A stretch of DNA of 64,000 nt from Candidatus Rifleibacterium amylolyticum (lineage in GTDB: Bacteria; Muiribacteriota; Ozemobacteria; Ozemobacterales; Ozemobacteraceae), in the NCBI GenBank assembly GCA_009917695.1, contig JAACJG010000001.1:517219-581218 (forward strand). Reading direction: 5' to 3'. The number at the start of each line of letters is the position of its first letter. Position 1 is the stretch's first letter. Positions 30,277 through 55,267 of this stretch are shown piece after piece. The position numbers and the translations under genes were made by a program. The notes under the pieces were generated by a model that was not told the DNA's origin, made no database searches, and worked only from the letters and a program-made list of their open reading frames with translations.

Positions 30277-30499
30277 GGGCGCAGGCGGGTTTCTCATGAG
30301 CGAAAACTTTTTGCACAGGGAGGTGCTTATGCTGAGCTGCGCAGGATAGAGCAGCTCAGCCGAGTCAGGCAGTTTTGACGCAAAGCTATAGCTTTTCACA
30401 ATATTCTTTCGTCTGGCGAGAGTTGCAGCGAATGAGGGCAAGCCATCCGCATCTCTAACGGCTGAAGCCGTAAGAGCTGCCTAATTCCGCCGAAAGCCC
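30277..30499 (+). ncRNA. Candidate structured RNA element, copy 1 (upstream of the 5'-nucleotidase)
   Basis: Predicted fold: closing stem GGGC/GCCC (30277-30280, 30496-30499), an internal loop GCA/GAAA, then GGCGG/CCGCC (30284-30288, 30487-30491). Inside is a branch GCG-AAAAC pairing with GTTTT-GA-CGC (30300-30307, 30372-30381), extended by a perfect 10-bp hairpin (30331-30340 with 30351-30360). A second arm near 30410-30432 and a further hairpin (30443-30466) follow. The element at 37844-37966 shares the framework, with a compensatory G-C to A-T change in the closing stem. The GACGCAAAGC segment resembles a piece of the c-di-GMP-I (GEMM) riboswitch, but other parts do not fit. It ends 165 nt before the next start codon. 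Confidence 0.55.
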
Positions 30500-30664
30500 G
30501 AATATGGAAACGATACAAAGTTTCAGCAGGAACATAGACAAAAAATTGAACATCTGAAAACTTTTCTGGTGGGGCAGCGTATTATTTTGCTCGAAGGCAT
30601 TGCGGGGTGGGGGATTGGTAAGTAGAATCTCTCTATACACTCTTAAAGAAAGCGCGTGCATTGA

Positions 30665-37843: not shown

Positions 37844-37966
37844 GGGCGCAGGCAGGCATTCCAAAAGCGTAAACTTCGAATCAGTCTCATTTGACGCAAG
37901 GCCATAGCAATACACCTTATATTTCGCCTGATGAGAGTTGAAGCGTTGGAAGCCTGCCGAGAGCCC
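37844..37966 (+). ncRNA. Candidate structured RNA element, copy 2 (upstream of tldD)
   Basis: Compact version of the element at 30277-30499. GGGC (37844-37847) pairs with GCCC (37963-37966); internal loop GCA/GAGA; GGCAGGC (37851-37857) pairs with GCCTGCC (37952-37958); TTCC (37859-37862) with GGAA (37948-37951). The branch GCG-T-AAA (37867-37873) pairs with TTT-GA-CGC (37890-37897). A CGC/GCG hairpin (37925-37944) forms the third arm. Shared single-stranded segments with copy 1 include GACGCAA and GAGAGTTG. It ends 124 nt before tldD. Confidence 0.55.
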
Positions 37967-38089
37967 GGGTACAAAACTTAAGACTTTGCATGTGTATCTG
38001 ATAAGCTGTTTACAACACTCAACTAAATGCTTTTTTTATGGTGGCATTTGCGGTAAAATATCTGGCAAATCAAGGAAAGGTGGCAAATA

Positions 38090-52689: not shown

Positions 52690-55083
52690 ATGTCACAAGC
52701 AAGCAATAATCTCGCATCCTACATCTGGTCGCTGGCCGATCTTTTGCGCGGCGATTTCAAGCAGAGCCAGTATGGCCGTATCATATTGCCTTTCACCCTG
52801 TTGCGCCGCCTCGAAGGCGTGCTCGAAGACACCAAAGAAGCAGTTCTGGCCGAATATGAGAAGGTTCAGAAGATGAAGCTGCCGGAAGAGGCCGCCGAAA
52901 AGCTTCTGCTGCGCGCTACTGGCGGCCTGGCGTTTTTTAATACTTCAAAAATGGATCTGTCGAAGCTCGGCGAAGCGAATATCAAAGAGAATCTTGAATC
53001 ATACGTGCAGAGTTTTTCCCGGCATGGCCGCGAGATTTTTGAATACTTCAACTTCAGCGAATTTGTCGGGCAGCTTAACGATGCCAATCTGCTCTATAAG
53101 TTCGTGCAGCGAGTCAGGCAGACTGATTTGAGCCCCAAGGCCATTTCCAATCATGAAATGGGGCTGGTTTTCGAAGAGCTGATCCGGCGCTTTGCTGAAA
53201 GCTCGAACGAGACCGCCGGCGAACACTTTACCCCGCGCGATATCGTGCGCCTGACCACGGCGCTGGTATTCATGGAAGACGACGAAGCGCTGACCAGAGA
53301 AGGCATCATCCGCACGGTTTATGACCCTACCGCCGGCACCGGTGGCTTTCTTTCGTCGGGTATGGAATACGTTTACGAGCTGAATCCGCGTGCTGTTATG
53401 CGCGCCTTCGGCCAGGAGCTCAACCCCGAGAGCTATGCGATCTGTAAGGCCGATATGCTGATCAAGGGTCAGGATGTCAGCAATATCAAGCTGGGCAACA
53501 CTCTTTCCAATGACCAGCTCTATACCTGGAAATTCGATTACATGCTTTCCAATCCGCCGTTCGGCGTTGACTGGAAAAAGAACGAACAGGAGATCAAAGA
53601 CGAACATACGCTCAAGGGCTTTTCAGGCCGCTTTGGCCCAGGTCTGCCGAGAGTTTCTGATGGCTCGCTGCTGTTTCTGCTGCATCTGATCAGCAAAATG
53701 CGTGACGCTTCAGAAGGTGGTGCCCGAATCGGTATCATTCTCAACGGTTCGCCGCTGTTCACCGGCGGCGCTGGTTCCGGGGAGTCTGAAATCAGGCGCT
53801 ATATTCTTGAGGCCGATCTGCTCGAAGCCATAGTGGCGCTGCCGACCGACATGTTCTACAACACCGGTATTTCGACTTATGTATGGGTGCTGTCGAACAA
53901 GAAGACGGCTGAACGCAAGGGCAAGGTTCAGCTGATCAATGCCGCCGATCTCTGCGGGAAAATGCGCAAGTCGCTGGGAGCCAAGCGCAATCTGATGGAA
54001 GAAGACGATATCGCGATTGTTACCCGCTGTTACGGAAACTTTGAGATAGTCGATGCCCGTCAGCTCGACAAGCCGGAAAAGCAGAAAAGCAATCGTGGCC
54101 GGCAGTCAGAAAATGGCAGAGTCGAGGCGCCAAAAACCTTTGCCAGCAAGATTTTCAACTATTACGAATTCGGCTATCGCCGGATTACGGTAGAACGGCC
54201 GCTGCGCCTGTCTTATCAGTTCAGCGATGAAAGAATCGAAGAACTGCGCTATGACTCTGGCGCTCTCAATGCTGCAATGAAATGGGTCTATGGTGAATAC
54301 GGCCAGAGCTGGTCTGATAAATCAGACTGCGATCTTTATGGCGCGCTGACTCTGCATGAAGAAGCTATTCGCAAACATGCTAAGAAGCACTTCGAAAACC
54401 TGAAGGAAAAACAGATCAAAGACCTGCTGAACCGGCAAACATGGCTCGATCAGAAAGCGGTCATGCTCAAGGCCCGGCAGCTGCAGAAAGCTCTTGGTAA
54501 GGAACAGTTCGACGACATGAACGGTTACGAAGATGCCTTAAAGGCGTCCGGTGTCAAGCTTGACGCCAAAGAAAAAAAGCAGATCACAGCAGCAGTCAGC
54601 TGGAAAAACCCCCAGGCCGAAAAAGTGATCAAAAAAATCCACTCAGCGAAGGCCAGCCATTCCCGCGAACCTTCTCGTCACTCCCACGATCTTCCTCGTC
54701 CTTCCTGCGAACCTTCTCGTCATTCCCGCGAAAGCGGGAATCCACTTTACGGTTTATTCCCGGTGAACGGCAAAATCGTTGAGTATGAAGCCGACAGCGA
54801 TCTGCGCGACTACGAGAACATCGCCCTCGACCCGACCCGGCCGGTCAACGAAGTAAACGAAGCCTATTTCACCAGAGAAGTGCTGCCGCATGTGCCCGAA
54901 GCCTGGATAGACGCCGACAAAAAAGACGCCAAAGACCAGGAAATTGGTATTGTCGGCTACGAAATCCCATTCAATCGCCACTTCTACGTTTACCAGCCGC
55001 CGCGTGACCTTGCCGAGATCGACGCCGACCTCGACAAAGTCAGCGCCGAAATCATGCAACTGCTCCACGAGGTCCACTCATGA
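52690..55083 (+). CDS. hsdM: Type I restriction-modification DNA methyltransferase subunit
   Basis: 797 residues from ATG 52690 ([10 protein letters not shown]), with GGGGAAG upstream. HsdM N-terminal helices (about 5-150) precede the N6-adenine methylase domain: motif I 'DPTAGTGGF' (about 213-221) and motif IV 'NPPF' (288-291), then '[20 protein letters not shown]' and '[14 protein letters not shown]'. It methylates adenine in the site chosen by HsdS using S-adenosylmethionine. An in-frame hairpin-repeat insertion at about residues 656-686 (signature RHSRESGNP) splits the C-terminal region, just before '[20 protein letters not shown]'. The C-terminus continues normally, so the protein may still work. 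Confidence 0.92.
54658..54743. repeat. ATTCCC-N8-GGGAAT repeat and decayed tandem units inside hsdM
   Basis: Four units of about 21 bp (CATTCCCGCGAACCTTCTCGT-like); the last is a complete inverted repeat ATTCCCGC-GAAA-GCGGGAAT (54722-54741). Because the unit is 21 bp the reading frame is kept, adding 7-residue units ([30 protein letters not shown]). Similar to the dRS3 repeat of Neisseria in its ATTCCC-N8-GGGAAT core. Confidence 0.75.
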
Positions 55084-55267
55084 AGCCTATTCAGTCACAC
55101 CCCGAACCTTTCACGTCAACTCCGAAACCCATCACGTCATTCCCGCCATCCTTCTCGTCATTCCCGCGAAAGCGGGAATCCACGCCCTTCCTCCCTCATC
55201 AACAGCAATATCATAAAACACTGGATTCCCGTTGCCACGGGAATGACAAGCCAGAGGTGCACTCATA
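55084..55267. repeat. Hairpin-repeat insertion between hsdM and hsdS with flanking duplication
   Basis: Contains ATTCCCGC-GAAA-GCGGGAAT (55160-55179) and ATTCCCGT-TGCC-ACGGGAAT (55225-55244), which together form a 91-bp two-hairpin element (GTCAT...ATGAC, 55157-55247). The stretch is bounded by GAGGTCCACTCAT (55069-55081, end of hsdM) and GAGGTGCACTCAT (55254-55266, before hsdS), a 13-bp duplication with one mismatch. The right copy supplies GAGG as ribosome site for hsdS. Confidence 0.7.

What the first reader, a model, noticed from the sequence alone, without database searches (positions are those of the whole stretch)
30277..30499. Conserved structured RNA candidate present twice with compensatory changes
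Two gaps (here and 37844-37966) share a framework: GGGC/GCCC ends, GCA/GARA internal loop, GGCRG/CYGCC stem with a G-C to A-T covariation, a GCG-WAAA/TTT-GA-CGC branch, and GAGAGTTG. Copy 1 has longer arms including a perfect 10-bp hairpin, as expected of RNA with variable arms. Both lie 5' of plus-strand genes (5'-nucleotidase, tldD). The GACGCAAAGC segment recalls c-di-GMP-I riboswitches, and c-di-GMP-type proteins occur in this window, but the rest does not fit that class.
Basis: partly seen in the sequence, partly recalled or inferred. Interest (0 to 1): 0.8.

Follow-up and report, generated by a model that had tools for sequence, protein, structure and literature searches.

The report
Mobile structured RNA repeat, Riflebacteria
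The two look-alike gaps belong to a family of at least 55 scattered, roughly 125-base repeats in this Candidatus Riflebacteria genome that spread like miniature transposons and keep a precise hairpin shape, so they are probably RNA-forming mobile repeats rather than a riboswitch of the genes next to them.

Summary
Both gaps carry one structured element (37844-37966; 30277-30499 with extra arms). The covariance model built here finds 55 copies in the host genome, 33 in three other species of its genus, and none in the other 53 genomes searched. Across 41 arm-free copies, 97.3% of cells in a 28-pair structure are paired and 11 pairs change on both sides (0 of 500 shuffles). GU outnumbers AC cells 84 to 5, so the plus strand is the one that folds.

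It is not a gene leader. Relatives lack the element at the orthologous sites, while sequence conserved just before both downstream genes lies downstream of it. Copies adjoin unrelated genes, and 30 of 49 are associated with two different miniature transposons with unrelated inverted repeats. No Rfam family matches, c-di-GMP-I included.

Best reading: a new ERIC/BOX-like small interspersed repeat acting mostly as an RNA segment co-transcribed downstream of genes (22 same-strand versus 6 opposite among co-directional gaps). Optional arms carry paired GGA-loop hairpins that match the CsrA-site consensus; csrA is present. CsrA binding and regulation are inferred, not shown.

The parts
30277..30499 (+). 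Copy 1 of the repeat: core with arms A and B, 223 nt
   Evidence: RNA fold -86.2 kcal/mol
30313..30326 (+). Arm A hairpin 1, GCAC-AGGGAG-GTGC: CsrA-type ANGGAN hexaloop
   Evidence: sequence; consensus from PMC7652899
30331..30360 (+). Arm A hairpin 2, 10-bp perfect stem with GCAGGATAGA loop (second GGA)
   Evidence: sequence
30377..30392 (+). Internal-loop segment GACGCAAAGCTATAGC, replaced after GACGCA in sister species
30393..30409 (+). Variable loop, the fastest-changing part of the core
30418..30425 (+). Conserved GAGAGTTG (GAGAGTTG or GATAGCTG in relatives, paired with AACT or AGCT)
30437..30483 (+). Arm B, inserted between the CTCAT/ATGAG helix and the GGCGGG helix; hairpin CTCTAACGGC-TGAA-GCCGTAAGAG at 30453-30476
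37844..37966 (+). Copy 2 of the repeat: arm-free core, 123 nt
   Evidence: RNA fold z-score -3.9
30596..30660 (+). Block conserved in relatives just before the 5'-nucleotidase gene, downstream of copy 1 and not part of the element; likely holds that gene's own promoter
   Evidence: shared with G001 and G002, which lack the element
38025..38089 (+). Block conserved in relatives just before tldD, downstream of copy 2 and not part of the element; likely holds that gene's own promoter
   Evidence: shared with relatives that lack the element

Best explanation
A genus-specific small interspersed repeat that works like ERIC or BOX elements. It spreads as, or inside, miniature inverted-repeat transposons. 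Once in a transcript, its plus strand folds into a long rod of five short helices separated by conserved internal loops, with optional side arms at helix junctions. Most copies lie downstream of a gene on the same strand, so the likely role is in cis, in the 3' or intercistronic part of mRNAs (stability, processing or read-through). Copies with arm A or C present paired GGA-loop hairpins that could recruit CsrA. Shown: repeat nature, structure, folded strand, absence at orthologous sites, association with two transposon types, strand bias. Inferred: transcription, effect on mRNA, CsrA binding.
For: 55 copies in the host genome and presence in only 4 of 57 genomes, all one genus. Orthologous sites lack the element: tldD gap in relatives, 5'-nucleotidase gap in G001 and G002, four other loci in G001 and/or G002. 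22 copies associated with a transposon having TCCTCTGTCACATTTGAATT ends and apparent CTAG duplications, 8 with one having GTAAAGATTCAGT ends, 19 without either. Structure: 97.3% paired, 11 of 28 pairs with double changes, slid controls at most 3. GU 84 versus AC 5. Conserved part differs about 5-10% between copies, variable loop about 30% in two of the three groups. Flanking genes ++ 22, -- 6 (P 0.004); sister genomes 10 and 1. Arm A hairpin 1 is ANGGAN in all 11 host places matching the strict motif, GGA kept while neighbours vary, second GGA about 22 nt away; csrA present.
Against: No transcript data. No autonomous element or transposase with matching ends was found, so mobility rests on distribution and missing sites. 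For copies without a recognisable transposon, sister genomes also lack or fail to align with tens of bases on each side, so their exact ends are unknown. Gene orientations rest on crude ORF picking. Arm-free copies have no GGA site, and some arm copies in sister genomes have lost it (ACGAG, AAGAAC), so CsrA cannot explain the core.
Confidence: 0.62

Rival explanations
1. A riboswitch or other cis-regulatory leader of the downstream genes, perhaps c-di-GMP-like.
For: Both window copies lie upstream of same-strand genes; GACGCAAAGC resembles part of c-di-GMP-I.
Against: No Rfam match. Neighbouring genes share no family. Relatives keep the gene starts but lack the element. Many copies lie in convergent gaps.
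Confidence: 0.03
2. Independent trans-acting small RNAs, for example a dispersed CsrA sponge of the CsrB or RsmZ type, made from many loci.
For: Dual GGA hairpins in arms A and C, about 22 nt apart; L012 has four GGA sites; csrA present.
Against: Most core copies lack any GGA arm; no significant promoter or terminator around the window copies; strand bias relative to upstream genes suggests co-transcription rather than independent units.
Confidence: 0.15
3. A DNA-only hairpin repeat: the fold matters as single-stranded DNA during transposition or replication, not as RNA.
For: Mobile distribution; compensatory changes can also arise in DNA hairpins; TA enriched at fixed offsets outside the core in copies without a recognisable transposon (9 of 19 on each side).
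Against: Same-strand bias toward upstream genes; conserved unpaired segments and arms at helix junctions; only one Y1 transposase match, with no copy near it.
Confidence: 0.15
4. A transposon-encoded guide RNA (omega RNA or bridge RNA type) with the variable loop as guide.
For: Internal variable loop of near-constant length flanked by constant sequence.
Against: No common nuclease or transposase next to copies; the loop drifts gradually between copies rather than being replaced; no HEARO match.
Confidence: 0.04

Closest known systems
ERIC elements of enterobacteria
   Same: About 127 bp (PMC2759123 abstract), intergenic, tens to hundreds of copies, structured if transcribed, orientation-dependent effect on upstream mRNA (PMC10969869, PMC3049150)
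   Different: Different host phylum and, by inspection only, different sequence; here optional arms at helix junctions and association with two unrelated transposon ends
BOX elements of Streptococcus pneumoniae
   Same: Modular small repeats whose extra modules fold separately from the rest; transcribed and thought to affect co-transcribed genes (PMC3049150)
   Different: BOX grows by tandem boxB units; here single arms sit at defined junctions
Correia elements (nemis) of Neisseria
   Same: Miniature transposon that becomes a folded, processed RNA segment in transcripts (PMC10969869)
   Different: Correia transcripts are cut at the terminal repeats; here the folded core is independent of the transposon ends
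CsrA/RsmE binding hairpins (hcnA site, RsmZ, CsrB)
   Same: Arm A hairpin 1 has the ANGGAN hexaloop closed by C-G and A-U, as in the hcnA site and the SELEX consensus RUACARGGAUGU (PMC4005645, PMC7652899)
   Different: The core has no GGA loops; binding untested

Membership tests
c-di-GMP-I riboswitch (RF01051) | Match to the covariance model | tested here: not met
   No match at gathering threshold in the window or 20 loci, none at E up to 10 on either window copy or on sister copy L138
c-di-GMP-I riboswitch (RF01051) | Conserved position in the leader of particular genes | tested here: not met
   Neighbours share no family; relatives lack the element
Miniature inverted-repeat transposable element | Many short non-coding copies with terminal inverted repeats and target duplication | tested here: met
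   For copies in CTAG-flanked and GTAAAGATTCAG-ended units; not seen for the 19 others
Miniature inverted-repeat transposable element | Absent from orthologous sites in close relatives | tested here: met
   exact junctions not resolved
Miniature inverted-repeat transposable element | A transposase with matching ends in the genome | tested here: inconclusive
   No intact element of transposase-coding size between matched ends within fetched loci; whole genome not checked
ERIC/BOX/RUP/Correia as named families | Shared sequence and host lineage | not tested
   No direct sequence comparison was run; the host is a different phylum and copies were found only in one genus
REP/BIME with RAYT transposase | 20-40 bp palindromes beside a Y1 transposase | tested here: not met
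   Unit about 125 bp; single Y1 match has no copy near it
CsrA-sequestering RNA | Several GGA hairpin loops and a CsrA protein in the same genome | tested here: met
   Arm-bearing copies only, two to four GGA loops; csrA at G000 C6:277616
CsrA-sequestering RNA | Expressed as a discrete RNA that binds CsrA | not testable with these tools
   Needs expression and binding data

The most novel reading that the evidence does not exclude
A mobile repeat family that distributes swappable dual CsrA-binding hairpins into the 3' and intercistronic regions of many mRNAs, wiring unrelated genes into a CsrA network by transposition.
Probability: 0.15. Interest if true: 0.75.

Novelty: new member of a known kind. 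Interest (0 to 1): 0.42.

Why it matters
It documents, apparently for the first time in Riflebacteria (a library search found no paper combining the three terms), a small interspersed repeat whose folded plus strand is clearly under constraint, with modular arms and a measurable strand preference. The 50-odd natural copies, with and without arms, make a ready comparison set for asking whether mobile repeats carry RNA-level regulation. It also removes a false riboswitch candidate.

Tried and rejected
Rfam at gathering and permissive thresholds: nothing. Pseudoknot of alignment columns 24-26/53-55: pairs in 95% of cells but no double changes, undecided. Mini-ORF ATG-CCG-AGC-TGC-GCA-GGA-TAG in arm A after an SD-like loop: rejected because the sister species has ATA in place of ATG and one host copy lost the stop. 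Hammerhead resemblance (CTGATGAGAG in copy 2): rejected, other copies have CTGGTGAGAG or CTGGGGAGAG. RAYT link: rejected. Exact empty-site junctions: alignments too loose in intergenic DNA. Viral contigs and plasmids: no match. Common gene neighbourhood: none, 163 Pfam families over 92 neighbours, none in more than 3. Searching solo flanks for decayed transposon ends: only L021 and L023 above z 3.

Full report
Observation. The two gaps carry the described framework at the stated coordinates. The genome is a Candidatus Riflebacteria: the best named tldD relatives are Riflebacteria bins at 88-89% identity. A pattern from the shared centre, GAYGCAARGCYATAG with one mismatch allowed, already matched 46 places in the host genome (reversed-pattern control 9). 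A covariance model from 15 copies finds 55 copies there, 27 in G002, 4 in G001, 2 in G005 and none in the other 53 genomes, including two of the same genus and 18 of the same family. No copies turned up in viral contigs (exact pattern) or plasmids.

Structure. Forty-one arm-free copies from four species align over 127 columns. The structure is a rod of short helices: GGGC/GCCC; GGCRGG/YCYGCC; TCTCA/TGAGA; GC/GC; AACTT/GAGTT; CCAGGC/GYCTGG. Of 28 pairs, 11 change on both sides and 97.3% of cells pair; no shuffle in 500 reaches this, and sliding the partner by one base drops pairing to about 45%. Clear cases: GGGC/GCCC to GTGC/GCAC, AACT/AGTT to AGCT/AGCT in the sister species, and C-G to A-U, G-C or U-A at the base of the last helix. 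GU cells outnumber AC cells 84 to 5, so the plus strand is the one that folds; this is a count of cells, not independent events. The conserved part differs by 5-10% between copies, while the internal loop differs by about 30% in the solo and first-transposon groups (8% in the small second-transposon group), which uniform decay would not give.

Arms. Extra hairpins sit at three helix junctions and not inside helices. Arm A is GCAC-ANGGAN-GTGC, TTAT, then a hairpin with a GGA loop. The strict arm A motif occurs at 11 places in the host genome, each inside a copy of the element found by the model or the centre pattern. A similar two-hairpin arm occupies the arm C position in L012, L151 and, in a sister species, L170 and L171. 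Arm B is a TGAA-loop hairpin with compensated stems, also found in truncated copies. Arm A hairpin 1 fits the ANGGAN hexaloop bound by RsmE and the SELEX consensus RUACARGGAUGU (PMC7652899; PMC4005645). The two GGA motifs are about 22 nt apart, compatible with the greater-than-18 nt preferred for dual-site binding (PMC7652899). The genome encodes a typical CsrA. Some sister arms have lost the GGA (ACGAG, AAGAAC), so the link is a hypothesis.

Mobility and placement. Of 49 well delimited host copies, 22 show features of an element with TCCTCTGTCACATTTGAATT ends and apparent CTAG duplications, 8 fall in one with GTAAAGATTCAGT ends, and 19 have neither; solo flanks show almost no trace of either end. 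The first transposon also carries an unrelated GTCATTGCGAGG interior. Solo copies are enriched for TA at fixed offsets outside the core, 9 of 19 on each side against 5% background. Relatives lack the element at the tldD gap, at the 5'-nucleotidase gap, where the intervals in G001 and G002 are longer and G002 encodes a PemK-like protein, and at four more sites. The junctions themselves are not resolved, because tens of flanking bases are missing or unalignable too.

Not a leader. In relatives without the element, the sequences just before the 5'-nucleotidase and tldD starts are conserved and lie downstream of the element in the window. Neighbouring proteins fall into 163 Pfam families, none in more than three of 92 proteins. 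Gap types, relative to the element's strand, are ++ 22, +- 11, -+ 8, -- 6. The excess of sense over antisense in co-directional gaps (22 to 6, P 0.004; 10 to 1 in sister genomes) argues that the RNA strand matters. The gene calls behind this are simple longest-ORF picks.

Conclusion. The element is best described as a new ERIC/BOX-like interspersed repeat whose function, if any, is at the RNA level in co-transcribed mRNAs. What is shown is the repeat family, the constrained fold, the folding strand, the arms, the missing orthologous sites and the strand bias. Transcription, mRNA effects and CsrA binding are inferred.

Noticed in passing
L186-L189, L193, L195, L196, L199, L204, L205: Transposon ends TCCTCTGTCACATTTGAATT also enclose a different interior, GTCATTGCGAGGAGCGTAGCGACGAAGCAATC..., so one set of ends carries at least two unrelated cargoes.
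   Followed up: partly
window 54654-54745 and 55092-55183: Two 74%-identical copies ending in CGTCATTCCCGCGAAAGCGGGAATCCAC, a palindromic repeat unrelated to this family.
   Followed up: no
L209 about 1045-1400 (G002); site in G001 (L208) of similar length: A PemK/MazF-like toxin gene occupies the site between the upstream gene and 5'-nucleotidase in G002; G001 has a gap of similar length there, not checked for the gene.
   Followed up: partly
L270 near its centre: A mosaic copy keeps the outer helices and arm B but has its inner helices replaced by an unrelated palindrome.
   Followed up: no
G000 C6:277616 (csrA) and C6:283599 (copy L112/L009): One repeat copy lies about 6 kb from csrA; possibly chance.
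   Followed up: no
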